From: Sulfurisoma sp. | Lineage (GTDB): Bacteria; Pseudomonadota; Gammaproteobacteria; Burkholderiales; Rhodocyclaceae | Assembly: GCA_030691075.1 (NCBI GenBank) | Contig: JAUYFI010000030.1 | Coordinates: 53,621 to 117,620, forward strand | Length of the DNA: 64,000 nucleotides | Direction: 5' to 3' | Shown here: piece by piece, positions 215-59,536 of the stretch | How positions within the stretch are numbered: the first letter of the stretch is position 1 | How the letters are laid out: every line of letters begins with the position of its first letter | The notes under the pieces: generated by a model | The model's database searches: none | The model's input: the letters and a program-made list of their open reading frames with translations, nothing else | What the model was told of the DNA's origin: nothing | Translations under genes and position numbers: made by a program

Positions 215-3040
215 TCAGGCAATCCCACGCGCCTCGCCCGCCTCGAACAGGTTGCTGGCGCAACGGCCGCAGAGTTCGGGATGTTCGCCGGCCTGATCGT
301 GCTGACCAACATCCGCGCGCCAGTGCCAGCAGCGCGCGCACTTCGCATGCGGGCTCGGGGTGACGGTAATCGCCGTGTCGCCAGCGCGCCCCGCAGGAAG
401 TACCCCTGGGGTGCCAACTTTCTTCAGAATTACCTTCGAGCAGATCAGCACGAACTTGAGATCGTCGCCGAGCGAGGCCAGCAGGTCGTGGGTTTCGTCC
501 GCGGCGTTGATCTCGACTTCGGCTTGCAGCGAGGAGCCGATGCCGCCCGCGCTGCGCACATCCTCGATCTTCTTCATGACGTCGCCGCGCACGGCACGGA
601 TGCCCTGCCACCGTGTCGCCAGCGCCGACTTTTCGGCAAGCTCGGGCAAGGTGTGCCAGGTCGTCAGCATCACGCTCTCGCCGCCATTGATCCGGGTGAT
701 CTCCTCGGCGGTGAAGGAGAGAATCGGCGCCATCAGCGTGGTGAGGCTCTGCACGATGTGCCACAGCGCGCTTTGCGCCGAGCGGCGCGCGCGCGAATCG
801 GCGGCCGCGGTGTAGAGGCGGTCCTTGAGGATGTCGAGGTAGAAGGCGCCGAGATCCTCGGAACAGAAATTTTGCAGCGCCTGAACGATCTTGTGAAACT
901 CGTAGCGGTCGTAGGCGGCGAGACAGGTGGACTGCAACTCGTGCGTCATGGCCAGCGCGTAGCGGTCGACCTCCAGCCATTGTTCGACCGGCAGCATCTG
1001 GGTCTTCGCGTCGAAATCGGCCGTGTTGGCGAGCAGAAACTTGAGGGTGTTGCGCAGGCGGCGATAGACCTCGACCACGCGGTCGAGAATCTCTTTGGAG
1101 ATGGTCAGCTCGCCCGAGTAGTCGGTGGCCGCCACCCACAGGCGCAGGATCTCGGCGCCGAGCGTGTCGGACACCTGCTGCGGCGCGACGACGTTGCCCT
1201 TGGACTTGGACATCTTCATGCCCTTGCCGTCGACAACGAAGCCGTGCGTCAGCAGCCCCTTGTAGGGCGCGCGGCCGTCGATGGCGCAACCGGTGAGGAG
1301 CGACGAGTGGAACCAGCCGCGATGCTGGTCGGAACCTTCGAGGTAGAGATCGGCCGGGTAGGCGCAATCGGCCTCGTGCGAGCCACGCAATACGGACCAG
1401 TGCGTGGTGCCCGAGTCGAACCAGACGTCGAGGGTGTCGCTCATCTTGTCGTGGTTCGCCGCATCGTCGCCGAGCAGATCTCTGGCGTCGAGCGCGAACC
1501 AGGCTTCGATGCCGCCGGCATCCACGCGCTTCGCCACGTCCTCGATCAATTCGAGCGTGCGCGGATGCGGCTCGCCCGTTTCCTTGTGCAGAAAGAAGGG
1601 AATCGGCACGCCCCAGTTGCGCTGGCGCGAGACGCACCAGTCCGGGCGATTGGCGATCATGGCGTGCAGCCGCGCCTTGCCCCACGAGGGAAAGAACTCG
1701 GTGGCCTCGATGGCGGCGAGCGCGGCAGTACGCAGCGTCTCGCCTTCGCTCGGCTGGCGATCCATTCCCACGAACCACTGCGTGGTGGCGCGGTAGATGA
1801 TCGGCGTCTTGTGGCGCCAGCAATGCATGTAGCTGTGGACGATCTCGCCGCTGGCCATGAGGCAGCCGACTTCGGCCAGTTTGGCGACGATCTCGGGGTT
1901 GGCCTTCCACACGTTGAGGCCGCCGAAAAACGGCAGACTCTCGGCGAAGCGGCCGTTGCCCTGCACGGGGGTGAGGATATCGTCGTTCTTCATGCCGGCG
2001 CGGCGGCAGGAATCAAAGTCCTCGACGCCGTAGGCCGGCGCGCTGTGCACGACGCCGGTGCCGGTATCGAGGGTGACGTAGTCGCCGAGGAAGACGGTCG
2101 AGGCACGGTCATAGAACGGGTGGCGGAAGACCATGCGATCGAGCGCGATGCCGCGCGCGGCACCGAGTACCTTGCCTTCGAGTCCGTAACGCTCGAGCGC
2201 GGAGGCACGCAGTTCCGCGGCGAGGATCAGCAGACCCTTCGTCGTATCGACCAGTTCATAGACGAACTCGGGATGGACGTTGAGCGCCTGATTGCCGGGA
2301 ATGGTCCAGGGCGTCGTGGTCCAGATCACGGCGTAGGCGGTCTTCTCCGGCAGCGCGTCCAAGCCGAAGGCGCCGGCCAGACGGCCGCGCTCGGCGGCGT
2401 CGAGCGCGAAAGCGACATCGATGGCCGGCGATTTCTTGTCGGCATATTCCACCTCGGCCTCGGCCAGCGCCGAGCCGCAGTCGAAGCACCAGTTGACGGG
2501 CTTCAGCCCCTTGAACAGGTAGCCGCGCCGGTACATCTCGCCGAGAGCGCGAATCTCGTCAGCCTCGGTGCGATATTCCATCGTCTTGTAGGGGCGATCC
2601 CAGTCGCCGAGCACGCCGAGACGAATGAAGTCCTTCTTCTGCCGCTCGATCTGCTCCTGGGCATAGGTGCGGCAGTGCGCGCGCGCCTGGTCGGCGGGCA
2701 GGTGCTTGCCGTGGGTCTTCTCGATCTGGTGCTCGATGGGCAGGCCGTGGCAGTCCCAGCCGGGAATGTAGGGCGCGTCGAAGCCGGCCAGGGTCTTCGA
2801 GCGGACGATGATGTCCTTGAGGATCTTGTTCACCGCGTGGCCGATGTGAATGTCGCCGTTGGCGTAGGGCGGGCCATCGTGCAGCACGAAGCGCGGGCGG
2901 CCCCTGGCGGCCTCGCGGATACGCTGGTAGAGCTGCTTTTGCTGCCACTCGGCGATCCAGCCCGGCTCGCGCTTGGCGAGGTCGCCCCGCATCGGGAACG
3001 GCGTGTCGGGCATGTTGAGGGTCTTGCGGTAATCGGCCAT
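215..3040 (-). CDS. ileS: Isoleucyl-tRNA synthetase
   Basis: Class I aminoacyl-tRNA synthetase that charges tRNA-Ile in the cytoplasm. The 941-residue protein has the usual bacterial length. The HIGH signature is seen as HIGH in '[11 protein letters not shown]' near residue 70, the KMSKS loop is intact near residue 605, and the C-terminus carries the zinc-ribbon cysteines CARC and CGRC. The start at [20 protein letters not shown] matches the family. The gene sits ten bases behind ribF on the same strand, the usual ribF-ileS order. Unusually, two copies of element A lie inside the reading frame: a short copy near residues 803-810 (EKSALATR) and a long copy near residues 873-889, just before the zinc ribbon, read as [17 protein letters not shown]. 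Both keep the frame. Confidence 0.98.
372..422 (+). repeat. Element A, long form (51 bp), inside ileS
   Basis: Shares both ends of the short element (GCCGTGTCGCCAGCG at the left, GTGCCAACTTTC at the right), with a 27-bp internal module between them. The module contains GCAGGAAGTACCCC and can fold as GCGCCCC pairing with GGGGTGC. One substitution (A for G) lies in the right arm. It is antisense to ileS and adds 17 codons in the variable linker ahead of the zinc ribbon. Confidence 0.9.
610..633 (+). repeat. Element A, short form, inside ileS
   Basis: Contains the invariant core CGCCAGCGCCGACTTTT behind CCGTGT. It is antisense to ileS and read there as EKSALATR, in the helical region near residue 805. 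Confidence 0.88.
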
Positions 3041-3049
3041 GGCGTTGCT

Positions 3050-3982
3050 CTAATTGCCTTCGAAATAATTGCGGATGTCTTTCACGTCGCGGCCGATCTG
3101 GGCCGTGAGATCGTCGAGCGAATCGAACTTCATCTCGTCGCGCATCTTGTGCAGGAAATGCACGGTGATGTGCGAACCGTAGATCTCGCGATTGAAATCG
3201 AACAGATTCACTTCCAGAACCGGCTTGAGCCCCTGGCCCAGCGTGGGACGCACGCCGAGGCTGGCCGCGCCCGGCAGGTGGCGCTTGTCGAGGCCCGATA
3301 CGGTGACGGCGAAGACGCCGCTGAGCGGCAGGCGCTTGCGCTTCAACTGGATGTTGGCGGTCGGCCAGCCGATGCGGCGGCCGATCTTGTCGCCATGCAC
3401 GACGCGGCCGGCGATGCAGTAGGGGTGACCGAGGAGCTGAGCCGCGTGCTCGAGATTGCCCGCGGCCAGCGCCTCGCGCACGGCGGAACTGGAGACGCGC
3501 TCGTCCATGACCTCGACGGTGTGCATGGCCTCGACGCCGAAGCCGTGCGCCTGCCCGGCCGAGGCGAGCATGGCGAAATCGCCGGCGCGACCCTTGCCGA
3601 AGCGGAAGTCGTCACCGACGATGAGGTGCCGAACGCCAAGCCCGCGCACCAGGATATGTTCGATGAATTCCTCGGCGGGCAGCGCGGCCACCCGCCGCGA
3701 GAAGTGGCAGACGTAGGCGCGATCGACGCCGCAGCCGTCGAGCAGTTGCAGTTTTTCGCGCAGGCTGGTGAGGCGGGCCGGCGCCTGTTCCGGCGCGAAC
3801 AGTTCGCGCGGATGCGGCTCGAAGGTCATCACCGTGGTCGGCAGGCCGAGTTCGGCGCCGCGCGCGGCCAGGCGCTCGAGCATGGCGCGATGGCCCAGGT
3901 GCAGGCCATCGAAATTGCCGATGGTGAGCACGGTGGGCTGGACGTGAGTGGCTGCTTCGGGAACCCTGCGAAAGACCAGCAT
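3050..3982 (-). CDS. ribF: Bifunctional riboflavin kinase / FAD synthetase
   Basis: Makes FMN from riboflavin and then FAD from FMN in the cytoplasm. The 310-residue length is typical. The N-terminal nucleotidyltransferase domain shows the TIGNFDGLHLGH motif (residues about 20-31) and a later SSSAVREAL segment. The C-terminal flavokinase domain shows GWPTAN and a conserved region ending near IRNYFEGN. The gene precedes ileS on the same strand with a nine-base gap, so the two are probably cotranscribed. FAD supply is relevant to the flavoproteins QmoA, QmoB and AprA in this window, but that is only a general link. Confidence 0.97.
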   Translation of the reverse strand: MLVFRRVPEAATHVQPTVLTIGNFDGLHLGHRAMLERLAARGAELGLPTTVMTFEPHPRELFAPEQAPARLTSLREKLQLLDGCGVDRAYVCHFSRRVAALPAEEFIEHILVRGLGVRHLIVGDDFRFGKGRAGDFAMLASAGQAHGFGVEAMHTVEVMDERVSSSAVREALAAGNLEHAAQLLGHPYCIAGRVVHGDKIGRRIGWPTANIQLKRKRLPLSGVFAVTVSGLDKRHLPGAASLGVRPTLGQGLKPVLEVNLFDFNREIYGSHITVHFLHKMRDEMKFDSLDDLTAQIGRDVKDIRNYFEGN

Positions 3983-4021
3983 TGCCGCCTTGTTTCCGTT
4001 CGGAAAAAGGGGCGAATTATA

Positions 4022-5302
4022 TCAGTCGAGCTTGGCTAATTTTGACTTCGCCAGCGGTGGATTCCGGGCGAAATAACCCTTGATGCCGCGCAGGATCGCC
4101 TCGGCCATCTTGTCCTGGTAATCCTCGTCGGTCAGCCGCTTTTCCTCTTCGGGATTGGAGATGAAGGCGGTCTCGACCAGGATCGAGGGAATGTCCGGCG
4201 CCTTTAGCACGGCGAAGCCGGCCTGCTCGACGTGGCCCTTGTGCAGGGCGTTGATGCCGCCGAGTTCGCCGAGAACGGCCTTGCCGAGTTTCAGGCTGTC
4301 GTTGAGCGTCGCGGTCTGCGACAGGTCGAGCAGCGTGCGCGCCAGGTGCGGATCCTTGACGCCAATGTTCACGCCGCCGATGAGGTCGGCCGAGTTTTCC
4401 TTGTTGGCCAGCCAGCGCGCGGCCGAACTCGACGCGCCGTTTTCCGACAGCACGAATACCGAGGAGCCGCGCGCGGTGGGCTTGATGAAAGCGTCGGCAT
4501 GCACCGAGACGAAGAGATCGGCCTGCACCCGCCGCGCCTTGCCGACGCGCTGGTGTAGCGGGATAAAGAAGTCGCCGTCGCGCGTAAGCAGAGAGCGCAT
4601 GTTGGGCTGGGCGTCGATCTTTTCCTTGAGGCGGCGCGCGATGGAAAGCGTGACCTCCTTCTCCTTCGCCCCGCCGCGGCCGATGGCGCCCGGATCCTCG
4701 CCGCCGTGGCCGGGGTCGAGAACGATGGTGACCATGCGGGTGATCTCGGGCTTGTCCGCGGGCTTGTCGCGACTCGCCGGGCGCGGTTCGTTCTTCGGCT
4801 CGCTCTTTTCCAGCAACGCCATCAGCGGGTCGATCTCCCGCGCCGGATAAAGGTCGAGCACCAGGCGATGGCCGTATTCGCCGATGGGCTTGAGGGTGAA
4901 CACCTGCGGCTTGATCTCGCCCTTGAGTTCGATTACCAGCCGCACCACGCCCGGCTTGTTGCGGCCGGCGCGGATCAGCTTGATGTAGGGGTCGGTTTCG
5001 GAAATCTTGTCCGGCAGGCTCTGCAGCACGGTGTTGAACTCGACGCCCTCGAGGTCGACGACGAGACGCTCGGGGTCCTTCACCAGCAGATGCGAAAAGC
5101 GGATCGCCTGGTCGTGTTCGAGGGTGACGCGGGTGTAGTCCTTCGCCGGCCAGACGCGCACACCGAGAATTCCGGCAGCGGCCGGCGTGGCGCCAGCGCC
5201 GACTTTTGCAACTGACAGCGTCAGGCTGGCGGCAGCGAACTTGAGGACGGCGCGGCGGGAAACGGAAAATTCGTCAGCGAATTTTTCAGGCGCGCGAGAC
5301 AC
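4022..5302 (-). CDS. amiC: N-acetylmuramoyl-L-alanine amidase, AmiC-like, Tat-exported
   Basis: Periplasmic zinc amidase that cuts septal peptidoglycan during cell separation. The N-terminus carries a twin-arginine signal, SRRAVLKF (residues 15-22), followed by a hydrophobic run. Residues about 50-150 form the AMIN domain (VRVWPAKDYTRVTLEHD). The C-terminal Amidase_3 domain has VLDPGHGGEDPGAIG, a conserved H in SVHADAF, and ILVETAFISNPEEE. Element A sits at residues 33-40 (KVGAGATP), exactly between the hydrophobic run and the likely cleavage region, so the repeat has become part of the signal peptide. The gene overlaps the 3' end of tsaE by about 80 bases, and the tsaE-amidase neighbourhood is common in proteobacteria. 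Confidence 0.93.
   Translation of the reverse strand: MSRAPEKFADEFSVSRRAVLKFAAASLTLSVAKVGAGATPAAAGILGVRVWPAKDYTRVTLEHDQAIRFSHLLVKDPERLVVDLEGVEFNTVLQSLPDKISETDPYIKLIRAGRNKPGVVRLVIELKGEIKPQVFTLKPIGEYGHRLVLDLYPAREIDPLMALLEKSEPKNEPRPASRDKPADKPEITRMVTIVLDPGHGGEDPGAIGRGGAKEKEVTLSIARRLKEKIDAQPNMRSLLTRDGDFFIPLHQRVGKARRVQADLFVSVHADAFIKPTARGSSVFVLSENGASSSAARWLANKENSADLIGGVNIGVKDPHLARTLLDLSQTATLNDSLKLGKAVLGELGGINALHKGHVEQAGFAVLKAPDIPSILVETAFISNPEEEKRLTDEDYQDKMAEAILRGIKGYFARNPPLAKSKLAKLD
5184..5207 (+). repeat. Element A, short form, inside the amidase Tat signal region
   Basis: GGCGTGG followed by the invariant core CGCCAGCGCCGACTTTT. It is antisense to amiC and is read as KVGAGATP in the protein. Confidence 0.88.
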
Positions 5303-5745: not shown

Positions 5746-6807
5746 GACTGGTCGGCACTCAAGGACAAAATAAAAGGCTGGGGCCGGGAACTCGGCTTCG
5801 ATGCCATCGGCATTGCCGGCACCGACCTGGGCGACGCGGAGGCGGGACTGAACGACTGGCTCGCCGCCGGCTGCCACGGCGAGATGGATTATATGGCCGC
5901 GCATGGCACCAAGCGTTCGCGACCCGCCGAACTGGTGCCGGGCACGCAGGCGGTGATCATGGGACGCATGAATTACCGTCCCGCCAGCGCCGATTTTTCT
6001 GGCGATGCCACGCAGGGAACCGTTTCGCGCTACGCGCTGGGCCGCGACTACCACAAGCTGCTGCGCGCGCGGCTGCAGAAGCTGGCCGACCGCATCGTCG
6101 ATGAAATCGGCGAGTTCGGCTATCGCGTCTTCACCGATTCGGCGCCGGTGATGGAAGTGGCACTGGCGAGGAACGCCGGCCTCGGCTGGCGCGGCAAGCA
6201 CACCCTGCTGCTGTCGCGCGAAGCCGGCTCGTGGTTTTTTCTCGGCGAAATCTTCGTGGCTTTGCCGCTGCCACCCGATGCGCCGACCACCGACCATTGT
6301 GGCACCTGCCGTGCCTGTCTCGACGCCTGCCCGACCGCTGCATTCACAGCGCCCTACCGCCTCGACGCACGTCGCTGTATTTCCTATCTGACCATCGAAC
6401 TCAAGGGCGCGATCCCCACCGCCCTGCGGTCGCTGCTCGGCAACCATATCCACGGCTGCGACGACTGCCAGTCCGTGTGCCCATGGAACCGCGAGGCACC
6501 ACTGACGCGCGAGGTGGACTTCCTGCCGCGCCACGGCCTCGATGTCGCGACGCTGCTCGAACTGTTCGCGTGGGACGCAGCGACGTTCAACGAGAAGCTG
6601 GCCGGCAGCCCCATCCGCCGCATTGGCCATGAGCGCTGGCTGCGCAACATCGCGGTCGCATTGGGCAATGTCCCTGCAACCACTGAAATCATCGCCGCGC
6701 TCGAGTCGCGGAACGACCACGCTTCGGCACTGGTGCGCGAGCACGTCGCCTGGGCTTTGGTGCAACAAAGAATCGGACTCGGTGGTTTGAAACGGACTGT
6801 TCCGTAG
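5731..6807 (+). CDS. queG: Epoxyqueuosine reductase
   Basis: Cobalamin- and iron-sulfur-dependent enzyme that catalyses the last step of queuosine synthesis on tRNA. Two ferredoxin-type [4Fe-4S] motifs are visible, CGTCRACLDACPTAAF and CDDCQSVCPWNR, and the segment SRYALGRDYHKLLRARL is typical of the family. The 358-residue length is normal. The start is either the ATG at the listed position or the ATG nine bases later; the second overlaps the tsaE start codon. Element A lies in the sense direction at residues about 82-90, where it encodes RPASADF between a conserved tyrosine and the SRYALGRDYH segment. The gene is divergent from tsaE. Confidence 0.95.
   Translation: MLGMHDWSALKDKIKGWGRELGFDAIGIAGTDLGDAEAGLNDWLAAGCHGEMDYMAAHGTKRSRPAELVPGTQAVIMGRMNYRPASADFSGDATQGTVSRYALGRDYHKLLRARLQKLADRIVDEIGEFGYRVFTDSAPVMEVALARNAGLGWRGKHTLLLSREAGSWFFLGEIFVALPLPPDAPTTDHCGTCRACLDACPTAAFTAPYRLDARRCISYLTIELKGAIPTALRSLLGNHIHGCDDCQSVCPWNREAPLTREVDFLPRHGLDVATLLELFAWDAATFNEKLAGSPIRRIGHERWLRNIAVALGNVPATTEIIAALESRNDHASALVREHVAWALVQQRIGLGGLKRTVP
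5975..5998 (+). repeat. Element A, short form, inside queG (sense)
   Basis: ACCGTCCCGCCAGCGCCGAT followed by TTTT; the one core change is C to T in GACTTT. It is read as YRPASADFS in QueG. Confidence 0.85.
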
Positions 6808-6819
6808 TCCGCCACGTTC

Positions 6820-7398: not shown

Positions 7399-7466
7399 AA
7401 TTTTACGATACAGATTTCTGTATCCTTGGTCAATCAACCGCGTTCGACCAGCCGACCCGAATGGCC

Positions 7467-9141: not shown

Positions 9142-9165
9142 GCCGTACCGCCAGCACCGACTTTT
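9142..9165 (+). repeat. Element A, short form, non-coding copy
   Basis: GCCGTACCGCCAGCACCGAC followed by TTTT. It has one core change (A for G) and lies in the spacer between the EamA remnant and a small acidic gene. Confidence 0.82.
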
Positions 9166-10982: not shown

Positions 10983-11006
10983 AAAAGTCGGCGCTGGCGA
11001 CACGGC
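10983..11006 (-). repeat. Element A, short form, upstream of the NUDIX gene
   Basis: Reads AAAAGTCGGCGCTGGCGACA then CGGC on the plus strand. The TGA at 10981-10983 closes the preceding frame, sharing its final A with the element. One of only two copies in this orientation. Confidence 0.88.
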
Positions 11007-14015: not shown

Positions 14016-14942
14016 ATGATGGTGCCACTGCAACGCGATGCCTCGGCGCGCCAGCGTAGCCGCCGCCTCTACGACGAACTCGGCTTCGCACTTTCCCGTC
14101 TCGAACGCGATGCGCTGGCCGGCTGGGGCCGGCGCTCCGGCGGACGCCTGCTGCTGCTCACGGGCCGCCGCGTCGGCGGGCTGGCGAAGCTGGCAAGCCT
14201 GCTTGCCCGGGCTGGTGGCGGCGAGCTGCTGGGCCTGCTGGAGGCGTATCGCCAGCGCCGACTTTCCGGGCACGTCGGCGATCGCAGCGCGGCGGCCATC
14301 GACGGCACGCTGGCCATCGGACGCGAGGGCAAGCGCATGGTGGCGGGCGTGGCGCGCGCCCTCGCGCGCGACCCGAAGGCCAATGCCCCGGCAGTGCTCG
14401 GTGCCCTGCTTGGCTTCGGTGCCGGCTCGGGCGGGCTGGACGGCAATGGCGGCCTGCCCGACCTCGACCTGCTGGCCGGCATCGGCGCCCACCGCTCGCC
14501 GCTGACGCACACCCTCGTCGCCGGCATCGTCGTCGAGGGCCTGCTGCTGGCGCTGGCCGATCTCGCCGCCGAAGTGCATGGCCGCCTGCCGGTCGACCAC
14601 GATCCGCTGTGGGATGCTCTGGCGAAGATCGGCCGCCCGTTGACGATCAACCTCGCCATCGGCACCAGCGCCGGCCTGGCTTACCATCTGCTGGTCGATG
14701 CCCTGGTGCAGCCGGGCGCCTACCACGGCCTGCCGATCAAGATGCCAATGGAAGCACATCAGGCCGGGCTGGCTATCAACGGCCTGGCAGAGGGCGCCGA
14801 TGCGGCTGCGCGGGCGAAGCGGCATCGGCCGGTGGAGATTGTGCAGGGCGGGGTGCCAGAGAAGTCGGCAGGGAGAAAGACCGTCGATGCAGTCGCAGGC
14901 TTGGCATCGCGATTGACTGCACGATTCGGAAGGGCATCATGA
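14016..14942 (+). CDS. Hypothetical protein with hydrophobic central region
   Basis: A 308-residue protein starting MMVPLQRDASARQRSRRLYD. A glycine-rich segment (LGALLGFGAGSGGLDGNGGL) is followed by GAHRSPLTHTLVAGIVVEGL, which recalls the 'HRxxTHS' signature of YdjM/LexA-associated membrane hydrolases, then LAYHLLVDALVQPGAYHGLP with further histidines. Histidines and an aspartate in hydrophobic helices would fit a metal-dependent membrane enzyme, but I cannot assign one. Element A lies at residues 76-84 and is read YRQRRLSG. The start lies ten bases after the PcfJ-like gene. Confidence 0.55.
   Translation: MMVPLQRDASARQRSRRLYDELGFALSRLERDALAGWGRRSGGRLLLLTGRRVGGLAKLASLLARAGGGELLGLLEAYRQRRLSGHVGDRSAAAIDGTLAIGREGKRMVAGVARALARDPKANAPAVLGALLGFGAGSGGLDGNGGLPDLDLLAGIGAHRSPLTHTLVAGIVVEGLLLALADLAAEVHGRLPVDHDPLWDALAKIGRPLTINLAIGTSAGLAYHLLVDALVQPGAYHGLPIKMPMEAHQAGLAINGLAEGADAAARAKRHRPVEIVQGGVPEKSAGRKTVDAVAGLASRLTARFGRAS
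14243..14266 (+). repeat. Element A, short form, inside the 308-aa hypothetical gene (sense)
   Basis: GGCGTAT followed by the core CGCCAGCGCCGACTTTC. It is read YRQRRLSG. Confidence 0.88.
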
Positions 14943-16032: not shown

Positions 16033-16920
16033 ATGAATTTCGCCGACTGGATGTCCGCGGTACAGGACCGCACCGAAGCCGCTTTGGCGACGTTCCTGCC
16101 GCCCGCCGACGCGCTGCCGGGGCGCCTGCACGACGCCATGCGCTACGCCGTGCTCGGCGGCGGCAAGCGCGTGCGGCCCCTGCTCTGCCATGCCGCCGGC
16201 GCGGTGTTCGACGCCCCCGCCGCCGAGCTCGATCGCGCCGCCTGCGCCGTCGAACTGATCCACGGCTACTCGCTGGTGCATGACGACCTGCCCTGCATGG
16301 ACGACGACACCCTGCGCCGCGGCAAACCGACGGTGCATGTCGAATACGACGAGGCCACGGCATTGCTGGTCGGCGACGCGCTGCAATCGCTGGCCTTCCA
16401 GGTACTCGCGGAAACGCCGGAATCGCCGTCCCGCCAGCGCCGACTTTCTTCCATGATCGCCCTGCTCGCCCACGCCGCCGGCTCACGCGGCATGGCCGGC
16501 GGCCAGGCCATCGACCTCGCCGCCGTCGGCCGGACGCTGACCCTGGCGGAACTGGAGCAGATGCACATCCACAAGACCGGCGCGCTGATCCGCGCCGCCG
16601 TGCTGCTCGGCGCGCACTGCGGCAACGCCGATGCCGCGGCACTGACGAGCCTCACCCGTTACGCCAACCGCATCGGCCTGTTGTTCCAGGTCGTCGACGA
16701 CATTCTCGATGCCGAGGCCAGCACCGCCACACTGGGCAAAACCGCCGGCAAGGACGCCGCGCAGAACAAGCCGACCTACGTGACCCTGCTCGGCGCCACC
16801 CGTGCCAAGGCGCTGGCTGCCGAACTGCGCGACGATGCGATCAAAGCGCTGGCGCCGTTCGGCAATCGCGCCGATCACCTCGCCGGCCTCACCCGTTACA
16901 TCGTCGAACGCAGCTTCTGA
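16033..16920 (+). CDS. ispA: Farnesyl diphosphate synthase (geranyltranstransferase)
   Basis: Condenses isopentenyl diphosphate with dimethylallyl and geranyl diphosphate to make farnesyl diphosphate. The first aspartate-rich motif is [10 protein letters not shown] (near residue 85) and the second is DDILDAE. The 295-residue length is normal. Element A lies at residues about 131-139 in the sense direction, read [10 protein letters not shown] in a loop between helices ahead of [10 protein letters not shown]. The stop codon overlaps the dxs start by one base (TGATG), so translation of the two is coupled. Confidence 0.97.
16425..16448 (+). repeat. Element A, short form, inside ispA (sense)
   Basis: GCCGTCCCGCCAGCGCCGAC followed by TTTC. 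It is read SPSRQRRLS in the protein. Confidence 0.9.
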
Positions 16921-18764
16921 TGACCGCCTATCCCCTTCTCGACGCGATTCACGACCCGGCCGACCTGCGTCGCCTGGAACGCGCCGCCCTGCCGCAACTG
17001 GCCGAGGAACTGCGCGCCTTCCTGATCGAGTCGGTGGCGAAGACCGGCGGCCACCTGTCGTCGAATCTCGGCACCATCGAGCTGACCATTGCGCTGCACT
17101 ACGTCTTCGCCACGCCAGAGGACCGCCTGGTGTGGGACGTCGGCCACCAGACCTACGCCCACAAGGTGCTGACCGGGCGGCGCGCCGGCATGGCGCGGCT
17201 GCGCATGCAGGACGGCGTCTCCGGCTTTCCGCGCCGCGACGAGAGCCGCTATGACACGTTCGGCGTCGGCCATTCCTCGACCTCGATCTCGGCCGCGCTG
17301 GGCATGGCCGTGGCCGCCCGCAACAAGGGCGAGGAACGCCGCGTGGTCGCCATCATCGGCGACGGCGCCATGTCCGCCGGCCAGGCCTTCGAGGCACTCA
17401 ACAACGCCGGCGTGGTCGACGCCAACCTGCTGGTCATCCTCAACGACAACGACATGTCGATCTCGCCGCCGGTCGGCGCCCTCAACAAGTACCTCGCCCG
17501 GCTGCTGTCGGGTCGAACCTTCAACGCCGCGCGCCGCGCCGGCGAGAAGGTGCTGTCGGTGTCGCCCTCGCTGCTGGAAATCGCCAAGCGCGCCGAGGAG
17601 CATGTCAAGGGCATGTTCGTCCCCGGCACGCTGTTCGAGGAATTCGGCTTCAACTACATCGGCCCCATCGACGGCCACGACCTCGATTCGCTGGTGCCGA
17701 CGCTGGAAAACCTGCGCCAACTCACGGGCCCGCAGTTCCTGCACATCGTCACGAAGAAGGGCCAAGGCTACAAGCTGGCCGAGGCCGACCCAATTCTCTA
17801 CCACGGCGTGTCGAAATTCGACAGCAGCGACGGCATCCAGTCGGGCGGCGGCAAGCTCACCTACACCCAGGTGTTCGGCGACTGGCTGTGCGACATGGCA
17901 CGGGAGGACCCGCGCCTGGTCGGCATCACCCCGGCGATGCGCGAGGGTTCGGGCATGGTGCGCTTCGCCGAAGAATTCCCGCAGCGCTATCACGACGTCG
18001 GCATCGCCGAGCAGCACGCGCTGACCTTTGCCGCCGGCCTCGCCTGCGAGGGCATGAAGCCGGTGGTGGCGATCTATTCGACCTTCCTGCAGCGCGCCTA
18101 CGACCAGCTGATTCACGATATCGCCATCCAGAACCTGCCGGTGATGCTGGCGATAGACCGTGGCGGCCTGGTCGGCGCCGACGGCGCGACGCACCAGGGC
18201 GCCTTCGATCTCTCCTATCTGACCTGCATTCCCAACATGGTGGTGATGACGCCCGCCGACGAGGCCGAGTGCCGCCAGATGCTGACCACCGCCTTCCATA
18301 TCGACGGCCCGACCGCCGTGCGCTATCCGCGCGGCAGCGGTCCTGGCGTGGCGCCAGCGCCGACTTTCGACACGCTGACCGTGGGCACGGGCGAAGTTCG
18401 CCGCAGAGGGCGGCGCGTCGCCATCCTTGCCTTCGGCACCCTGCTGACGGCGGCGCTCGAAGCCGGCGAGCAGCTCGACGCGACCGTCGCCAACATGCGC
18501 TTCGTCAAGCCGCTCGACAACGAGTTGGTGCTGGAACTGGCGCGAACACACGAACTGCTGGTCAGCGTCGAGGAGAATGCCATCATCGGCGGCGCCGGCG
18601 CCGAGGTCGTGCGCTGCCTCGAGACCGCCGGCAGCCGCGCGCCGCTGCTGCGCCTCGGCCTGCCCGACAGCTTCATCGAGCACGGCGAACAAACCGCGAT
18701 GCTGGCGCAGCTCGGCCTCGATGCCGACGGCATCGCCCGAAGGATTCGCGAATTTAATAGTTGA
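16920..18764 (+). CDS. dxs: 1-deoxy-D-xylulose-5-phosphate synthase
   Basis: Thiamine diphosphate enzyme joining pyruvate and glyceraldehyde 3-phosphate, the first step of the MEP isoprenoid pathway. The protein has 614 residues. The ThDP-binding [18 protein letters not shown] is seen near residue 150, [19 protein letters not shown] near the N-terminus, and the transketolase pyrimidine domain has [20 protein letters not shown]. The C-terminal domain contains [20 protein letters not shown], where VAPAPTF is element A in the sense direction (residues about 476-483) at the junction into the last domain. It follows ispA directly. Confidence 0.98.
18345..18368 (+). repeat. Element A, short form, inside dxs (sense)
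   Basis: GGCGTGG followed by the core CGCCAGCGCCGACTTTC. It is read GVAPAPTF, in the linker to the C-terminal domain. Confidence 0.9.
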
Positions 18765-27162: not shown

Positions 27163-27567
27163 GTGACGTCCCATCGCCGTGCCGCCAGCGCCGACTTTTT
27201 CCCCCGCGGCGCCCGACTCGCCAACCTCGCCGCCAGCGTCAGCCTGATCGCCCTGATCGCGCTGTGCCTGGCCTGGGAACTGCGGATCGCGCCGCTCAAG
27301 CCGGGGGGCTCGTGGCTGGTGCTGAAGACGCTGCCGCTGCTGGCGCCGCTGTTCGGCATCCTGCACGGTCGGCGTTACACCCACCAGTGGGCATCGCTGT
27401 TGATTCTCGCCTACCTCGGCGAAGGGCTGGTGCGCGCGACGACCGATAGCGGCCCGATGCGCGTGATGGCGGGCATCGAGGTGCTGCTGGCGACGGCTTT
27501 TTTTGCCGCCACCGTCGTTTACGCCCGGATCACCCGTCCGTCGGCGCGGGCTACAGCTGCGGATTGA
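27163..27567 (+). CDS. DUF2069 membrane protein
   Basis: Small inner-membrane protein with four likely helices, for example [20 protein letters not shown] and [16 protein letters not shown], then [20 protein letters not shown] and [20 protein letters not shown]. The layout matches DUF2069 proteins, whose role is unknown. I use the GTG that has GAAAGG seven bases upstream; the track uses a TTG two codons earlier. Element A lies at residues about 5-12, read RAASADFF, so the repeat forms most of the N-terminal tail ahead of the first helix. The 3' end overlaps leuA by 17 bases. Confidence 0.8.
27176..27199 (+). repeat. Element A, short form, in the 5' end of the DUF2069 gene (sense)
   Basis: GCCGTGCCGCCAGCGCCGAC followed by TTTT. 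It is read RAASADFF just before the first membrane helix. Confidence 0.9.
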
Positions 27568-30717: not shown

Positions 30718-31803
<1,086 letters not shown>

Positions 31804-40285: not shown

Positions 40286-40747
40286 ATGACCGACAACATC
40301 ATCGACAAGGCGGATTCGCTGATGCGCCGCCATCGAGCCTTCGTCGCCGGCGAGGCGATGCCCGCCGACAGCCCAACCGCCGTCCCGCCAGCGCCGACTT
40401 TTTCGGCGGCCAGCACTGAAGCCGAGGCCGAGGACATTCCGCTGCTGACCGAAGTCGTGGCGGATGACGCTGGCGCGATGGGACTTCCGCCGCTGGCCGG
40501 TGGCACCGACATCGAAGTCCTGCTGCGCGAACGGCTGGCCGCCGCCCTGCCGCGGCAACGTGAGGTGCTGCGCCACGAACTGGCGCTCTGGCTCGACGAA
40601 CAGTTGCCGCAGATCGTCATGCGCGTGCTCGACGGCGTCACCGACCAGCTCGTCGCCCAGATCAATACCCAAGCCCGCATGGCGCTGCTGCCCAAGCTTC
40701 AAGCCGCGCTCGAAGCCGATAATTCAGGACTGAGTACCGAGGACTGA
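40286..40747 (+). CDS. Hypothetical protein between holC and valS (DUF2486-like)
   Basis: A 153-residue protein starting MTDNIIDKADSLMRRHRAFV. The middle is acidic (EAEAEDIPLLTEVV) and the C-terminal third is helical (LRHELALWLDEQLPQIVMRV). The position between holC and valS is where betaproteobacteria carry a short DUF2486-type protein, so I suggest that family, with low certainty. Element A lies at residues 32-39 and is read AVPPAPTF. The last codons, for LSTED, are made by a repeat that continues past the stop. Confidence 0.65.
   Translation: MTDNIIDKADSLMRRHRAFVAGEAMPADSPTAVPPAPTFSAASTEAEAEDIPLLTEVVADDAGAMGLPPLAGGTDIEVLLRERLAAALPRQREVLRHELALWLDEQLPQIVMRVLDGVTDQLVAQINTQARMALLPKLQAALEADNSGLSTED
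40379..40402 (+). repeat. Element A, short form, inside the holC-valS hypothetical gene (sense)
   Basis: GCCGTCCCGCCAGCGCCGAC followed by TTTT, the consensus form. It is read AVPPAPTF. Confidence 0.92.
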
Positions 40748-48342: not shown

Positions 48343-48412
48343 GGTTTATTTAGCGAGAAATAACGGGATTGGGTGCCGAGTAAGCAAACGAGCGCAGCGA
48401 GCAAATCAGTCG

Positions 48413-48430
48413 CCTCCCCGCGAGGGGAGG
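48413..48430 (-). repeat. GC-rich hairpin in the soeB-soeC gap
   Basis: CCTCCCC-GCGA-GGGGAGG, a perfect seven-base stem, followed by ATGGGAGGGG. It lies between two genes of one operon and could reduce readthrough into soeC or stabilise the upstream message. Confidence 0.6.
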
Positions 48431-48506
48431 ATGGGAGGGGCGGGCGTCTGTTGCCTTTAACGATTTCATGGCACGGGCGTGGTCTTGGCGACCATGTAAG
48501 TTGGGC

Positions 48507-49238: not shown

Positions 49239-52120
49239 TTGTTCTTGCCAGCGAAGAAGTTCCAGACGCTCTTGCGCTCGGACTGGCCGGGATAAGGCTT
49301 CAGCGGCTCGAACTGCGGCGAAGTGACCGCCGTCTCGCCAGCGCCGACTTTATAGATCCGCACGCGCACGTCGTACCACGCGGCCTGCCCGGTGATCGGA
49401 TCGGAATTGGAAATATTGCCCGGCCCGGCCTTGTCCACGCTGGCCGGCAGTTCCTCGGAGATCAGGTGGTTGAGCAGGAAGCCGCGTTGCGACTCGTTGG
49501 CATCCGGCGTCAGGTTCCAGGCACCCGCCGCCTTGCCGATGGCGTTCCAGGTCCACACCGTGCCCGGCTCGACCGCCTCGGAATGGCGGGCCATGCAGCG
49601 CACCTTGCCCCACTGCGATTCGACCCAGATCCAGTCGCCGTCCTCGATGCCGGCGACGCGGGCGGTATGGCTGTTCACGTAAAGGTAATTGTGGGTGTGG
49701 ATCTGCCGCAACCAGGCGTTCTGCGAATCCCACGAGTGGTACATCGCCATCGGCCGCTGGGTCACGGCGCACAGCGGGTACTTGTGCTTGTCGGAGGCCT
49801 GGCTCTCCAGCGTCTCATAGTAGAAGGGCAGCGGGTCGAAATAGGTCTCGACGCGTTTCTTCAGGTGCTCCGGCGGCTTGCGCGTGAGCCCCTTGCCCTG
49901 CGCCGCCGTGCGGAACTTTTGCAGCACCTCGGAGTAGATGTGGATCAGGATCGGTTCGGCGTAGCGCGTGATGCGGCTGCGCTGCGACCATTCGAGGTAG
50001 CCCTTGTTCCAGTTGCGCATGTACTGGTAGCTCTTGGGCAGTTCGTAGTGGAAGACGCAGTCGTTCTTGGCGTACATCTCCCACTGGTTTGGGTTCGGTT
50101 CCCCGCGGAGTGATTTTTCGCCACCCTTGCCGCGCCAACCGGCGAGGAAGCCGATGCCCGAGCCGGGCTCGGTCTCGTAGTTGACGATGAAGTCCGGGTA
50201 GTCGCGGTACTTGCGACTGCCGTCCTTGTTCACGAACACCGGCAGCTTGAGGCGGGTGCCGAGTTCGATCAGCACTTCCTGGAAGGGCTTGCATTCGCCC
50301 GTCACTGGCACCACCGGGATGCGCACGGAATCGACCGGGCCGTCGAACTCGGAAATCGGCCGATCGAGAATCGACATGACATCGTGGCGCTCGAGGTAGG
50401 TGGTATCCGGCAGCACCAGGTCGGCAAAGGCCGTCATCTCGGACTGGAATGCGTCGCAAACGACGAGGAAGGGAATCTTGTATTCGCCATCCTCGCCCTT
50501 GTCGTTGAGCATCTTGCGGACCTCGACGGCGTTCATGGTCGAGTTCCACGACATGTTGGCCATGAAGATCAGCAGGGTGTCGATGCTGTAGGGATCGCCG
50601 CGCCAGGCGTTGGTGATGACGTTGTGCATCAGGCCGTGCACCGACAGCGGGTACTCCCAGGAGAAACCCTTGTCGATGCGCACCGGCTTGCCCTGCTCGT
50701 CGACAAACAGATCGTCGGGGTCGGAGGGCCAGCCCAGCGCCATGCCGTCGAGCGGGTGATTCGGCTTGACCGCCAGCGGCGTGTTCGGCGTGCGGGCGCA
50801 GGGCGGGATCGGCCGCGGGAACGGCACCTTGTGGCGAAAACCGCCCGGCCGGTCGATGGTGCCGAGCAGCGACATCAGGATAGCCAGCGCGCGGATGGTC
50901 TGGAATCCGTTGGAGTGCGCGGCCAAGCCGCGCATGGCGTGGAACGAAACCGGATTGCCGGTGACGCTGTCGTGCTCGACGCCCCAGGAGTCGGTCCAGG
51001 AGATCGGCAGCTCGATGCGCTGATCGCGGGCGGTAACGCCCATTTCGCGCGCCAGGCGGCGGATGGTGTCGGCGGATATGCCGGTGATGCCGGCGGCCCA
51101 GTCGGCCGTGTAATTCTCGACGCGCTCCTTCAGCAACTGGAACGAAGGCTTGACCGGCGTGCCGTCACGCAGCGTGAACTCGCCGAACAGGTAAGGGTCG
51201 GCTCCGGCCTGATGGGTGACGACGGCCTTGTCGGTATTGCGGTCCCACCACAGCTTGTCCTGCGGGTCGTAGCAGGCTTCCTCTTCCGGCACCTCGGTGC
51301 GCAGGAACATGCCGAACTCGTCGCTGGCCGCATCGACGTTCACCAGTTGGCCGGCGTTGGAATACCTGACCAGGAAGTCGCGGTCGTAAAGGCCGAGCGC
51401 GATGATTTCGTGGATGATGGCCAGCAGCAGCGCGCCGTCGGTGCCGGGACGGATGGGCACCCATTCGTCGGCGATCGCCGAATAACCGGTGCGCACCGGG
51501 TTGATCGAAATGAAGCGGCCGCCGTCGCGCTTGAACTTGCCCAGCGCCATCTTGAGCGGATTGGAATGATGGTCCTCGGCGGTGCCGATCATCACGAAAA
51601 GTTTCGACCGATCCAGGTCGGGACCGCCAAACTCCCAGAAGGAGCCGCCGATGGTGTAGATCATGCCGGCGGCCATGTTGACCGAGCAGAAGCCGCCATG
51701 CGCCGCATAGTTGGGCGTGCCGAACTGGCGGGCGAAGAGGCCGGTCAGCGCCTGCATCTGGTCGCGACCGGTGAACAGCGCGAACTTCTTCGGGTCGGTG
51801 GCGCGGATTTTGGCCAAGCGCTCGGACAGGATGGTGAACGCCTCTTCCCAGCTGATCGGTTCGAACTCGCCCAGACCGCGATCCGAACCAGCCTTGCGCC
51901 GCAACGGCCGCGTCAGCCGCGCCGGCGAATACTGCTTCATGATGCCCGAGCTGCCCTTGGCGCAGATCACCCCCTTGTTGAGCGGGTGGTCGGGGTTGCC
52001 GTCGATGTAGCGGATCTGCCCATCGCGCAGATGCACGCGTATGCCGCAGCGGCAGGCGCACATGTAGCAGGTGGTCTTCTTGATCTCCGTGACCGGAGCG
52101 GGTGCGGGGGATGCTTGCAT
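49235..52120 (-). CDS. soeA: Sulfite dehydrogenase molybdopterin subunit SoeA
   Basis: Catalytic subunit of the DMSO-reductase family, thought to oxidise sulfite to sulfate on the cytoplasmic side. The 961-residue protein begins with a [4Fe-4S] binding group CYMCACRCG with the fourth ligand in KGVICAKGSSG, and has no twin-arginine signal, which fits a cytoplasmic enzyme. The molybdopterin-guanine-dinucleotide domains follow (GRDQMQALTGLFARQFGTPN, then LFVMIGTAEDHHSNPLKMAL) and the C-terminal domain contains YLYVNSHTARVAGIEDGDWI. Element A lies near residues 924-931, read KVGAGETA, in the last beta region. A perfect FNR-type box lies upstream. Other enzymes of the family (for example polysulfide reductases) cannot be fully excluded. 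Confidence 0.9.
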   Translation of the reverse strand: MQASPAPAPVTEIKKTTCYMCACRCGIRVHLRDGQIRYIDGNPDHPLNKGVICAKGSSGIMKQYSPARLTRPLRRKAGSDRGLGEFEPISWEEAFTILSERLAKIRATDPKKFALFTGRDQMQALTGLFARQFGTPNYAAHGGFCSVNMAAGMIYTIGGSFWEFGGPDLDRSKLFVMIGTAEDHHSNPLKMALGKFKRDGGRFISINPVRTGYSAIADEWVPIRPGTDGALLLAIIHEIIALGLYDRDFLVRYSNAGQLVNVDAASDEFGMFLRTEVPEEEACYDPQDKLWWDRNTDKAVVTHQAGADPYLFGEFTLRDGTPVKPSFQLLKERVENYTADWAAGITGISADTIRRLAREMGVTARDQRIELPISWTDSWGVEHDSVTGNPVSFHAMRGLAAHSNGFQTIRALAILMSLLGTIDRPGGFRHKVPFPRPIPPCARTPNTPLAVKPNHPLDGMALGWPSDPDDLFVDEQGKPVRIDKGFSWEYPLSVHGLMHNVITNAWRGDPYSIDTLLIFMANMSWNSTMNAVEVRKMLNDKGEDGEYKIPFLVVCDAFQSEMTAFADLVLPDTTYLERHDVMSILDRPISEFDGPVDSVRIPVVPVTGECKPFQEVLIELGTRLKLPVFVNKDGSRKYRDYPDFIVNYETEPGSGIGFLAGWRGKGGEKSLRGEPNPNQWEMYAKNDCVFHYELPKSYQYMRNWNKGYLEWSQRSRITRYAEPILIHIYSEVLQKFRTAAQGKGLTRKPPEHLKKRVETYFDPLPFYYETLESQASDKHKYPLCAVTQRPMAMYHSWDSQNAWLRQIHTHNYLYVNSHTARVAGIEDGDWIWVESQWGKVRCMARHSEAVEPGTVWTWNAIGKAAGAWNLTPDANESQRGFLLNHLISEELPASVDKAGPGNISNSDPITGQAAWYDVRVRIYKVGAGETAVTSPQFEPLKPYPGQSERKSVWNFFAGKNK
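49329..49352 (+). repeat. Element A, short form, inside soeA
   Basis: GCCGTCTCGCCAGCGCCGAC followed by TTTA. It is antisense to soeA and read KVGAGETA near the C-terminus. Confidence 0.9.
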
Positions 52121-52169
52121 GGGGGGCGGGCAAACGGTAAATTAGAACTTGGCGATATTCTGACAAAAT

Positions 52170-52183: not shown

Positions 52184-52253
52184 CAAGGGGAAAGTTTTTA
52201 TTTCCGAATAAACTCCCCCATCCCCTTGCGCCAACAAGGAAAGAGGCCAACAC

Positions 52254-52670: not shown

Positions 52671-52674
52671 TCCG

Positions 52675-52881: not shown

Positions 52882-53393
52882 AAATCTGCATCGTTTCCGA
52901 CAGCCATGATCGCGCCCAGCACCTTTCGGCCGCGGTCGCCGAAGCCAAAACCCTGGGCGCCGAGGCCGTCATCCACTGCGGCGACATCATCGGCGGCAAC
53001 ACCCTCCGCGCTTCGCTCAAACTCGGCCTGCCGATGCACGTGGTCCATGGCAACAACCTCGGCGACCCCGTGGCCATCGGCCGCCTCGCCTGCAATTCCG
53101 ACTCGTTGCTGCACTATCACGGCCACGACGCCGGCATCAGCCTCGGCGGTCGCCGCATATTCATCACCCACTATCCGCACCTCGGCCGCGGCATGGCCTG
53201 CACCGGCGACTACGACGTGGTCTGCTGCGGCCACAGCCACGAGGCACTGATCACCCAGGAGCCCAACGTGACCGGCGGCAAGACCTGGCTGGTCAATCCG
53301 GGTACCGTCGCCGGCATCGCCGGCGCACCGGCGACGTGGATACTCGGCGACCTCGATGCCATGACCTTCGAGCTCTGCCGGACACCGACCTGA
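52878..53393 (+). CDS. Metallophosphoesterase, YfcE/MJ0936-type
   Basis: Two-metal phosphodiesterase of the calcineurin-like superfamily. All five metal-binding motifs are visible in the 171 residues: CIVSDSHD, VIHCGDIIGG, VVHGNNLGD, IFITHYPHLG and VVCCGHSHEAL. The small size and lack of extra domains fit the YfcE/MJ0936 group, whose natural substrates are unclear. It is the third gene of the unit that is divergent from soeA. Its stop codon TGA shares the last A with the long copy of element A. Confidence 0.88.
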   Translation: MKICIVSDSHDRAQHLSAAVAEAKTLGAEAVIHCGDIIGGNTLRASLKLGLPMHVVHGNNLGDPVAIGRLACNSDSLLHYHGHDAGISLGGRRIFITHYPHLGRGMACTGDYDVVCCGHSHEALITQEPNVTGGKTWLVNPGTVAGIAGAPATWILGDLDAMTFELCRTPT

Positions 53394-53443
53394 AAAGTCG
53401 GCACCCCAAGGGTACTTCCTGCGGGGCGCGCTGGCGGGACGGC
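53393..53443 (-). repeat. Element A, long form (51 bp), at the phosphoesterase stop codon
   Basis: On the plus strand it reads AAAAGTCGGCACCCCAAGGG, then TACTTCCTGCGGGGCGCGCT, then GGCGGGACGGC. It has the same 27-bp hairpin module as the copy in ileS, with a single difference in the loop-side stem. It starts at the last base of the stop codon. Confidence 0.9.
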
Positions 53444-53497
53444 GCGGATCGCATCCAGCGCCGCCGGCAACCCGCCAATTCGCTCAAATTTACGAGG

Positions 53498-53513
53498 CCT
53501 ATTGGTCAATAGG
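53498..53513 (+). promoter_or_regulatory. Palindrome with T-run upstream of qmoA
   Basis: CCTATTGGTCAATAGG is a perfect seven-base inverted repeat followed by AATTTTTTAG. It could be a weak terminator for the phosphoesterase unit or a regulator site for qmoA, whose start lies about 108 bases further on. Confidence 0.5.
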
Positions 53514-53620
53514 AATTTTTTAGCAAAATCTTGATTTCAGCCGGTTTGCCCGCAGAAGCCCGAGAGTAGAATCGCCGCGTTCATCCTGAACACCCGAACA
53601 CTCTTCATCGGAGGCTCGAT

Positions 53621-54907: not shown

Positions 54908-54909
54908 CC

Positions 54910-57159: not shown

Positions 57160-57179
57160 GATAGAGGAGCTTGACAACA

Positions 57180-57803: not shown

Positions 57804-57820
57804 GCCCGACGGAGAGAAAA

Positions 57821-58720: not shown

Positions 58721-58734
58721 GCCGGGGTATGACA

Positions 58735-58812
58735 CCCCCCACGCTCACTTCGTTCGCTGCCCCCGCAGGGGGCGCTGCCCCCGCAGGGGGCGCTGCCTCC
58801 TTCGGGGCGGCC
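58735..58812 (+). repeat. Element B-like copy with two tandem 18-bp hairpin units
   Basis: CCCCCCACGCTCACTTCGTT is followed by two head-to-tail copies of GCTGCCCCCGCAGGGGGC (58756-58773 and 58774-58791), then GCTGCCTCCTTCGGGGCGGC. It shares the CCCCACGCTC end and GGGGCGGCC end with element B. Each unit can fold as GCCCCC-GCA-GGGGGC. It lies between hdrB and the CBS gene. Confidence 0.8.
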
Positions 58813-58827
58813 CTTCAGGAGACATCC

Positions 58828-59457
58828 ATGGAAAAGTCCGCCTACAAGGCGCTGCCGATGCAGATCATCAAGGAGGGCACCAGCTACCTGCCCCCCGGCG
58901 GCGGCGTGCCGCGCCTGGTGAAAATGGACTCGCCGGCCGTGACAGTCATGACCGACCTCTGTCAGGTGCCGGCGGCAACCATCCGCGCCGATGCCACGGC
59001 AGCCCAGGCCAGCCAGGCGATGATCGCCCGCGGCGTGCGCCTGCTGCTGGTGGTCGATGCGGCGGGCTTCGTCGAGGGTGTCCTCACCGCGCGCGACACC
59101 ATGGGCGAAAAGCCGGTCAAGTTGCTCGAGGAAAAGGGCGGAAAGCACGACGACTTGCGCGTCGCCGACCTGATGACGCCACGCGACAGGATCGAGGCGC
59201 TCGAAATGGCCGCCGTGCTCAAGTCCATGGTCGGCCACGTCGTCACCACCCTGCGCGAATCCGCGCGCCAGCACGCGCTGGTGATCGACCGCGACCCGAT
59301 CAACGGCGAGGAGCGCATTCGCGGGGTGTTCTCGGCCACGCAAATTGCCCGCCAGCTCGGCATCTCGATCCAGACTTTCGAGGTCGCCAGCACCTTCGCC
59401 GCCATCGAATCGGGCCTGGAACGCTGGGGTTTCGGCAAGCAGGTCACGCAGCGCTGA
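58828..59457 (+). CDS. CBS-domain protein
   Basis: A 209-residue soluble protein starting MEKSAYKALPMQIIKEGTSY, with AGGAG nine bases upstream. It contains a pair of CBS motifs: ATAAQASQAMIARGVRLLLV followed by EGVLTARD, and VGHVVTTLRESARQHALVID followed by RIRGVFSATQIARQL. CBS pairs bind adenine nucleotides, which would include AMP released or used by APS chemistry. Being next to the Qmo-Hdr operon, it could sense the adenylate state for this pathway. That role is an inference. Confidence 0.8.
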   Translation: MEKSAYKALPMQIIKEGTSYLPPGGGVPRLVKMDSPAVTVMTDLCQVPAATIRADATAAQASQAMIARGVRLLLVVDAAGFVEGVLTARDTMGEKPVKLLEEKGGKHDDLRVADLMTPRDRIEALEMAAVLKSMVGHVVTTLRESARQHALVIDRDPINGEERIRGVFSATQIARQLGISIQTFEVASTFAAIESGLERWGFGKQVTQR

Positions 59458-59512
59458 ACCAGCGCCGTCCGGTCAGATCAAGGCGCCCGCGGGCGCCATT
59501 TTTTTCATCATC

Positions 59513-59536
59513 GCCGTCCCGCCAGCGCCGACTTTT
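59513..59536 (+). repeat. Element A, short form, at the histidine kinase stop codon
   Basis: GCCGTCCCGCCAGCGCCGAC followed by TTTT, the consensus form. Its T-rich end lies against the kinase gene on the other strand and shares a base with the TAA stop. Confidence 0.92.

What the first reader, a model, noticed from the sequence alone, without database searches (positions are those of the whole stretch)
372..59536. A dispersed mini-element (element A), 15 copies in 64 kb, ten of them inside protein-coding genes
The same sequence recurs at 372-422, 610-633, 5184-5207, 5975-5998, 9142-9165, 10983-11006, 14243-14266, 16425-16448, 18345-18368, 27176-27199, 31757-31780, 40379-40402, 49329-49352, 53393-53443 and 59513-59536. 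The core CGCCAGCGCCGACTTT is nearly invariant. Ten copies are in genes of unrelated function, including essential ones (ileS twice, ispA, dxs). One copy per about 4 kb is far above chance for 16 fixed bases. In-gene insertion resembles Rickettsia palindromic elements, but the sequence is different and I know of no described family with it.
Basis: partly seen in the sequence, partly recalled or inferred. Interest (0 to 1): 0.92.

Follow-up and report, generated by a model that had tools for sequence, protein, structure and literature searches.

The report
Possible new DNA-uptake tag, not transposon
A 24-letter DNA word is repeated hundreds of times in these bacteria, evenly spread and written into genes by letter changes rather than by insertion, which is how the "self" tags for DNA uptake look in Neisseria and Haemophilus; if confirmed it would be the third bacterial family known to tag its own DNA this way.

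Summary
The repeat is real. Thirteen short copies lie at the stated places (0.23 expected), plus two 51-bp copies. The host is an uncultured Rhodocyclaceae. Its genome holds 398 copies at up to 2 mismatches against 0 for the reversed control. Sister species and several related genera carry hundreds each; most relatives carry about none.

It is not an inserted mini-element. At orthologous sites lacking it, no clean 24-bp gap was seen; the best-aligned sites (ileS, ispH, a molybdopterin oxidoreductase) are ungapped and changed by substitution. Copies are more evenly spaced than random (CV 0.67 vs 0.96, 0 of 4000 simulations). They are about four times denser between genes than in genes, rarer in non-conserved genes, frame-biased, and differ by genus-level dialects. 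These match hallmarks of DNA uptake sequences, known only from Neisseriaceae and Pasteurellaceae (PMC12616744). Uptake itself is untested.

The two long copies differ: a 27-bp insert sits inside the motif. Inserts of 27, 24 and 21 bp recur there, in frame, even in IleS and IspH. No Y1/RAYT transposase was found in G000 or G001. How these inserts move is unknown.

The parts
372..422 (+). Long form (motif + 27-bp insert) in ileS
   Evidence: Reads GCCGTGTCGCCAGCG|CGCCCCGCAGGAAGTACCCCTGGGGTG|CCAACTTTC. G003 has the uninterrupted motif at the same ileS position, a clean 27-bp gap; G001 has a different insert there.
610..633 (+). Short motif in ileS, antisense to the gene
   Evidence: Exact core. 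Ungapped against IleRS orthologues. G003 carries a 27-bp insert inside this copy.
5184..5207 (+). Short motif near the N-terminal end of an AMIN/Amidase_3 gene
   Evidence: shared at the same site by G001, G002 and L063, degenerate in G003.
5975..5998 (+). Short motif in queG (1 core mismatch)
   Evidence: region variable in relatives.
9142..9165 (+). Short motif, intergenic by my gene calls (1 core mismatch)
10983..11006 (-). Short motif, intergenic by my gene calls; the only short copy on the - strand
14243..14266 (+). Short motif inside a called gene
16425..16448 (+). Short motif in ispA (polyprenyl synthetase)
   Evidence: degenerate at the same site in G003 and G001.
18345..18368 (+). Short motif in dxs
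   Evidence: shared by G001 and G002 (the latter in its CGCTAGCG dialect), 3 bp shorter and motif-free in L098.
27176..27199 (+). Short motif inside a called gene
   Evidence: shared by G001 and G003.
31757..31780 (+). Short motif, intergenic
   Evidence: shared by G001 and G003.
40379..40402 (+). Short motif inside a called gene
   Evidence: shared by G001.
49329..49352 (+). Short motif in a molybdopterin oxidoreductase gene
   Evidence: Five relatives align without a gap and lack the motif (9-10 mismatches to it in G003 and G001): clearest case of gain by substitution.
53393..53443 (-). Long form (motif + 27-bp insert), intergenic
   Evidence: G001 has a short, T-dialect motif at this place.
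59513..59536 (+). Short motif at the edge of a called gene

Best explanation
The 24-bp motif is a self-DNA recognition tag that works like the DNA uptake sequences of Neisseriaceae and Pasteurellaceae: a surface receptor of the competence / type IV pilus system would bind it on free DNA, so DNA carrying it is taken up more often. Because incoming DNA recombines with the chromosome, chance near-matches are converted step by step into the tag and lost tags are restored, giving hundreds of evenly spaced, length-neutral copies that drift into dialects between genera. Shown: abundance, in-place gain, even spacing, dialects, frame tolerance, avoidance of coding and of non-conserved genes. Inferred: that the motif is read during uptake, that the cells are competent, and the receptor. 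Secondarily, short inserts (27, 24 or 21 bp) have entered some copies; this is shown, their mechanism is unknown.
For: 398 copies at up to 2 mismatches vs 0 for the reversed control. Mismatch spectrum 35, 26, 6, 7, 6 copies with 0-4 mismatches in 454 kb, permuted patterns 0, 0, 0, 0.14, 0.9. In-place gain, no clean 24-bp gap, the mode proposed for uptake sequences (PMC1939737). Even spacing: pooled CV 0.67 vs 0.96, 0 of 4000 simulations; relatively even distribution is an expected result of uptake-driven accumulation (PMC7811141). Intergenic 5.0 vs coding 1.2 per 10 kb; G001 genes with a conserved G003 partner 1.64 vs 0.73 without; the same biases are reported for known uptake sequences (PMC7811141). 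Frame bias: 53, 31, 25, 20, 9 and 1 copies in the six frames. Dialects: CGCTAGCG in G002, TGCCGTCYCGCCAGCGCCGASTTT in G106, CGCCAGCGTCGACTTT in g70. No replication polarity in G106 (23 vs 34). ComEC in all 26 genomes tested; a minor-pilin cluster lies about 4-14 kb upstream of the window.
Against: No uptake data exist. ComEC and a ComP_DUS-type pilin are equally present in motif-free relatives, so no gene found here tracks the motif. The motif carries 33-36 bits, more than the 9-12 nt motifs of known systems. Inverted pairs, reported as frequent in Neisseria genomes, are not found in own/G001/G003 (1 opposite-strand pair within 100 bp). At DNA level, density does not differ between aligned and unaligned sequence in G001 (1.81 vs 1.90). 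The motif is also in at least 120 viral stretches. Uptake does not explain the inserts.
Confidence: 0.6

Rival explanations
1. Binding site of a chromosome-organising or DNA-processing protein (nucleoid protein, segregation, recombination or repair site) that must occur every few kb.
For: Even spacing, both strands, conserved positions and genus dialects would fit any needed protein site; also present in phages.
Against: No replication-strand polarity in G106, unlike polar sites such as KOPS or Chi. One species each of g2 and g20 nearly lack it (55 and 1 copies) while their congeners have hundreds, odd for a core chromosome function. Long information-rich sites placed inside conserved enzymes are costly for a binding site.
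Confidence: 0.17
2. Motif copied in place by a template-directed replacement process (short-patch conversion from other copies or from incoming single-stranded DNA), with no uptake receptor involved.
For: Few intermediates between perfect copies and background; at 49329 nine of 26 bases differ from G003 within well-conserved flanks.
Against: Does not by itself predict even spacing, scarcity in non-conserved genes, or dialects. Near-matches at orthologous sites (L098, L062, G003) look like stepwise intermediates.
Confidence: 0.1
3. A mobile mini-element inserted into genes, like Rickettsia palindromic elements or RAYT-mobilised REPs.
For: High copy number, near-identical copies; the 27-bp insert in the two long copies is a true insertion.
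Against: Short copies add no length at well-aligned orthologous sites; no clean 24-bp gap, while the same method shows clean 27/24/21-bp gaps for the inserts. Not palindromic, no Y1_Tnp in G000 or G001, spacing more even than random.
Confidence: 0.05
4. A phage-derived regulatory element (leader or promoter-like sequence) that spread to hosts.
For: Motif in at least 120 viral stretches, reversed control 0; 36 of 200 viral copies are followed by a ribosome-binding site and start codon by a loose pattern.
Against: Host copies are mostly inside genes in both orientations; 25 of 179 host copies have such a downstream start. No recognisable copies in cultured phages.
Confidence: 0.05

Closest known systems
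DNA uptake sequence (DUS) of Neisseriaceae
   Same: Very many copies, both strands, in genes and between them, genus-level dialects, in-place evolution; another betaproteobacterial group. The motif begins GCCGTC(T/C), like DUS GCCGTCTGAA.
   Different: 24 bp rather than 10-12; lacks the essential CTG core; positions 6-7, where it would resemble DUS, are its most variable; no inverted pairs in own/G001/G003; receptor unknown; uptake untested.
Uptake signal sequence (USS) of Pasteurellaceae
   Same: Relatively even spacing, avoidance of coding and newly acquired DNA, gain by point mutation, a long extended motif.
   Different: Unrelated sequence; lower density (one per about 5-8 kb against about 1 kb); uptake untested.
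REP/BIME elements with RAYT (Y1) transposases
   Same: The 27-bp insert is a small palindrome-like element, strongly so in the G003 ileS copy (z -3.1); some g20 genomes hold 54-bp tandem arrays containing an inverted motif-like segment.
   Different: The motif is not palindromic and mostly intragenic; no Y1_Tnp in G000 or G001; 13 of the 14 palindromic inserts I recognised by eye lie inside the motif.
Rickettsia palindromic elements
   Same: In-frame additions to essential proteins: the inserts lengthen IleS and IspH by 9 residues.
   Different: Far shorter and found almost only inside a pre-existing motif; the 24-bp motif itself is not an insertion.

Membership tests
DNA uptake sequences (DUS/USS) | Strong genome-wide over-representation on both strands | tested here: met
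   203 + and 195 - copies, reversed control 0; top over-represented 12-mer in own and G106 samples.
DNA uptake sequences (DUS/USS) | Arises by substitution in place, not insertion | tested here: met
   precedent in PMC1939737.
DNA uptake sequences (DUS/USS) | Relatively even spacing | tested here: met
   expectation in PMC7811141.
DNA uptake sequences (DUS/USS) | Under-represented in coding sequence | tested here: met
   1.22 vs 4.98 per 10 kb, with my own gene caller.
DNA uptake sequences (DUS/USS) | Under-represented in newly acquired DNA | tested here: inconclusive
   Gene-level 0.73 vs 1.64 per 10 kb, but the DNA-alignment test shows no difference; longest motif-free tracts contain polysaccharide-type genes as read by eye.
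DNA uptake sequences (DUS/USS) | Dialects that follow phylogeny | tested here: met
   carriers form two supported clades on the IleRS tree, single origin not excluded. Congruence of each dialect with the tree was not tested in detail.
Neisseriaceae DUS | Essential core CTG | tested here: not met
   Not in the consensus; core requirement from PMC3630211 and PMC12616744.
Neisseriaceae DUS | Frequent inverted pairs at terminators | tested here: not met
   1 opposite-strand pair within 100 bp among 257 copies in own/G001/G003, 0 in the G106 sample.
DNA uptake sequences (DUS/USS) | Competence and pilus machinery with a specific receptor | tested here: inconclusive
   ComEC and ComP_DUS-type pilin present but also in motif-free relatives.
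DNA uptake sequences (DUS/USS) | Biased uptake of tagged DNA | not testable with these tools
   Needs an experiment.
REP/RAYT | Palindromic, extragenic unit | tested here: not met
REP/RAYT | RAYT/Y1_Tnp gene in the genome | tested here: not met
   None in G000 (89.6% complete) or G001 (98%); one or two in some other carriers.
Rickettsia palindromic elements | Adds residues to open reading frames | tested here: not met
   Not for the 24-bp motif; true for the 27/24/21-bp inserts.

The most novel reading that the evidence does not exclude
A third, independently evolved DNA uptake sequence system in Rhodocyclaceae, with the longest and most information-rich tag known, shared by their phages, and itself the specific target of a family of 21-27-bp mini-inserts that lengthen essential proteins in frame.
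Probability: 0.4. Interest if true: 0.88.

Novelty: new variant of a known kind. Interest (0 to 1): 0.76.

Why it matters
A 2025 paper states that only Neisseriaceae and Pasteurellaceae are known to discriminate self DNA at uptake (PMC12616744). A third case in uncultured environmental bacteria would show that tagging self DNA evolved repeatedly outside animal-associated bacteria, give a new receptor-motif pair to find, and predict that these MAG-only lineages are transformable, which would help to culture and study them. The inserts raise a second question: how pieces of 21-27 bp are placed precisely inside one motif.

Tried and rejected
Rfam scan and tRNA/tmRNA search of the window: nothing. 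Exact-string literature searches: nothing relevant. Cultured phages and plasmids: background matches only. Replication-strand bias: none in G106. Alternative dialects in motif-poor congeners: G271 shows no strong dispersed motif, G266 only other repeats. Folding: short motif and insert types A (own version), B, C and D are not significant; only the G003 ileS insert is, so palindromy is claimed for type-A-like inserts only and is weak. Poisson test of motif-free tracts: two of at least 40 kb against 0.5 expected, not convincing.

Full report
OBSERVATION. Two further copies are long forms of 51 bp. The host is a Rhodocyclaceae: IleRS best matches are Rhodocyclaceae MAGs. Own genome (3.39 Mb draft): 398 copies of the 21-mer at up to 2 mismatches, reversed control 0. 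From 109 copies the conserved block is about 24-25 bp, GCCGT-S-Y-CGCCAGCGCCGACTTTT, and the flanks are random.

DISTRIBUTION. With up to 3 mismatches the three genus mates carry 309-562 copies, and genera g2, g9, g20, g63 and g88 carry about 400-800 in most species. Most other genera carry about none. One g2 species (G266, 55) and one g20 species (G271, 1) are exceptions. Across about 400 genomes of the order (up to 1 mismatch), only genomes of the own family exceed 4 copies. Named carriers reached through IleRS loci are all MAGs (L062, L063, L064, L098); genomes assigned to Azoarcus, Thauera, Zoogloea, Aromatoleum, Methyloversatilis and Sterolibacterium have 0-3. On an IleRS tree carriers fall in two supported groups; a single origin is not ruled out. 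Dialects: own GCCGTSYCGCCAGCGCCGACTTTT; G002 with CGCTAGCG; g20 TGCCGTCYCGCCAGCGCCGASTTT; g70 CGCCAGCGTCGACTTT.

NOT AN INSERTION. In ileS the short copy encodes [10 protein letters not shown], which aligns without gaps to the orthologues. In the molybdopterin oxidoreductase (49329) five relatives align ungapped and lack the motif. In IspH, 2-3 kb upstream of the window (C88:50538-51486), G003 has no motif, G001 has the short motif at the same length, and the own genome has the long form. Where a relative lacks the motif, net length differences are scattered and include no clean 24-bp motif gap, whereas the same procedure finds clean 27-, 24- and 21-bp gaps for the inserts. Some motif-lacking sites lie in poorly aligned, length-variable stretches and decide nothing.

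UPTAKE-SEQUENCE HALLMARKS. (a) Mismatch spectrum peaks at 0-1 with few intermediates. (b) Spacing more even than random: G001 CV 0.71 (P 0.0013), C55 0.55 (0.0013), C114 0.49 (0.003), C88 0.82 (0.27), pooled 0.67 vs 0.96 with 0 of 4000 simulations. (c) Density 4.98 per 10 kb between genes, 1.22 in genes; G001 genes with a conserved G003 partner 1.64, without 0.73. (d) Reading frames: antisense 53/20/1, sense 31/25/9; the frames that would encode R- and W-rich peptides are nearly empty. (e) Motif columns are as or more conserved than the flanks (0.82-0.91 vs 0.80-0.84), a weak signal. (f) No replication polarity. Literature for (b) and (c): PMC7811141; for in-place evolution: PMC1939737; for dialects and inverted pairs: PMC3630211; for the restriction of known systems to two families: PMC12616744. 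Features not met: inverted pairs and the DUS CTG core. Not discriminating: ComEC and ComP_DUS-type pilins, present also in motif-free relatives. The gene calls behind (c) and (d) come from a simple codon-model caller written here.

INSERTS. Spacing between the motif halves shows one main class and peaks at +27, +24 and +21 bp (161 short; 11, 7 and 2). Type A (27 bp) reads CGCCCCG(C/A)AGGAAGTACCCYTGGGGTG; the exact-ended type A copies in G000, G001 and G003 all have the same length. Type B (24 bp) ends ...GGATACCGCTACGCATA; type C (21 bp) reads about AGCGCTCTGTGTCCCTCCGGG; type D is seen twice in C55. By eye, 13 of 14 recognisable type-A-like palindromes in 1.24 Mb lie inside a motif. They occur in genes (IleS, IspH gain 9 residues) and between genes. 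ileS site 372 holds type A in own, type B in G001 and no insert in G003; ileS site 610 holds an insert only in G003: independent insertions into the same sites. No Y1_Tnp in G000 or G001. No such insert class was found in 121 viral loci.

PHAGES. L287 encodes RecT-like and RecE-like proteins, a dUTPase and a phage-type repressor, so at least some are true phages. No recognisable copies in cultured phages or plasmids. Phages of a tagged host carrying tags would not contradict an uptake role (from general knowledge of Haemophilus phages; not checked here).

VERDICT. The best-supported reading is an uptake-sequence-like self tag (0.6), with a chromosomal protein site as main rival. The inserts are real and unexplained.

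Noticed in passing
L257, L271, L283, L292 and other viral loci: Some phage copies of the motif stand just downstream of attC-like GTTRRRY sequences, suggesting cassette-like gene units in these phages; 36 of 200 viral copies have a loose GTTRRN match within 25 bp upstream (11 of 179 in hosts).
   Followed up: partly
L256, L286, L292, L318, L271: Diverse phages share a motif copy beside a conserved gene end that reads like the C-terminus of a DNA methyltransferase (by eye).
   Followed up: no
own genome contigs C55, C114, C88, C12: A second dispersed repeat, CCGTTCGTGGTGAGCCTGTCGAACCAC-like, 27 copies of its 14-mer in 454 kb of the own genome; its 14-mers were not among the repeats listed for the G001 and G003 contigs.
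   Followed up: no
window 48389-48445, 58773-58830, 60850-60956: Three further repeated stretches with many copies in G001, G003, G004 or G011.
   Followed up: no
L141-L148 (G022): 54-bp tandem arrays of 2-5 units, each holding a motif and a degenerate inverted motif.
   Followed up: partly
C88:39573-49795 of the own genome, about 4-14 kb upstream of window position 1: Type IV minor-pilin genes (one a ComP_DUS-family match) and a large PilY1-like gene lie next to ispH, lspA and ileS: candidate place for a receptor.
   Followed up: partly
window, all short copies: 12 of 13 short copies are on the + strand although the genome-wide ratio is 203:195; neighbouring copies agree in strand slightly more often than not (103 vs 74).
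   Followed up: partly
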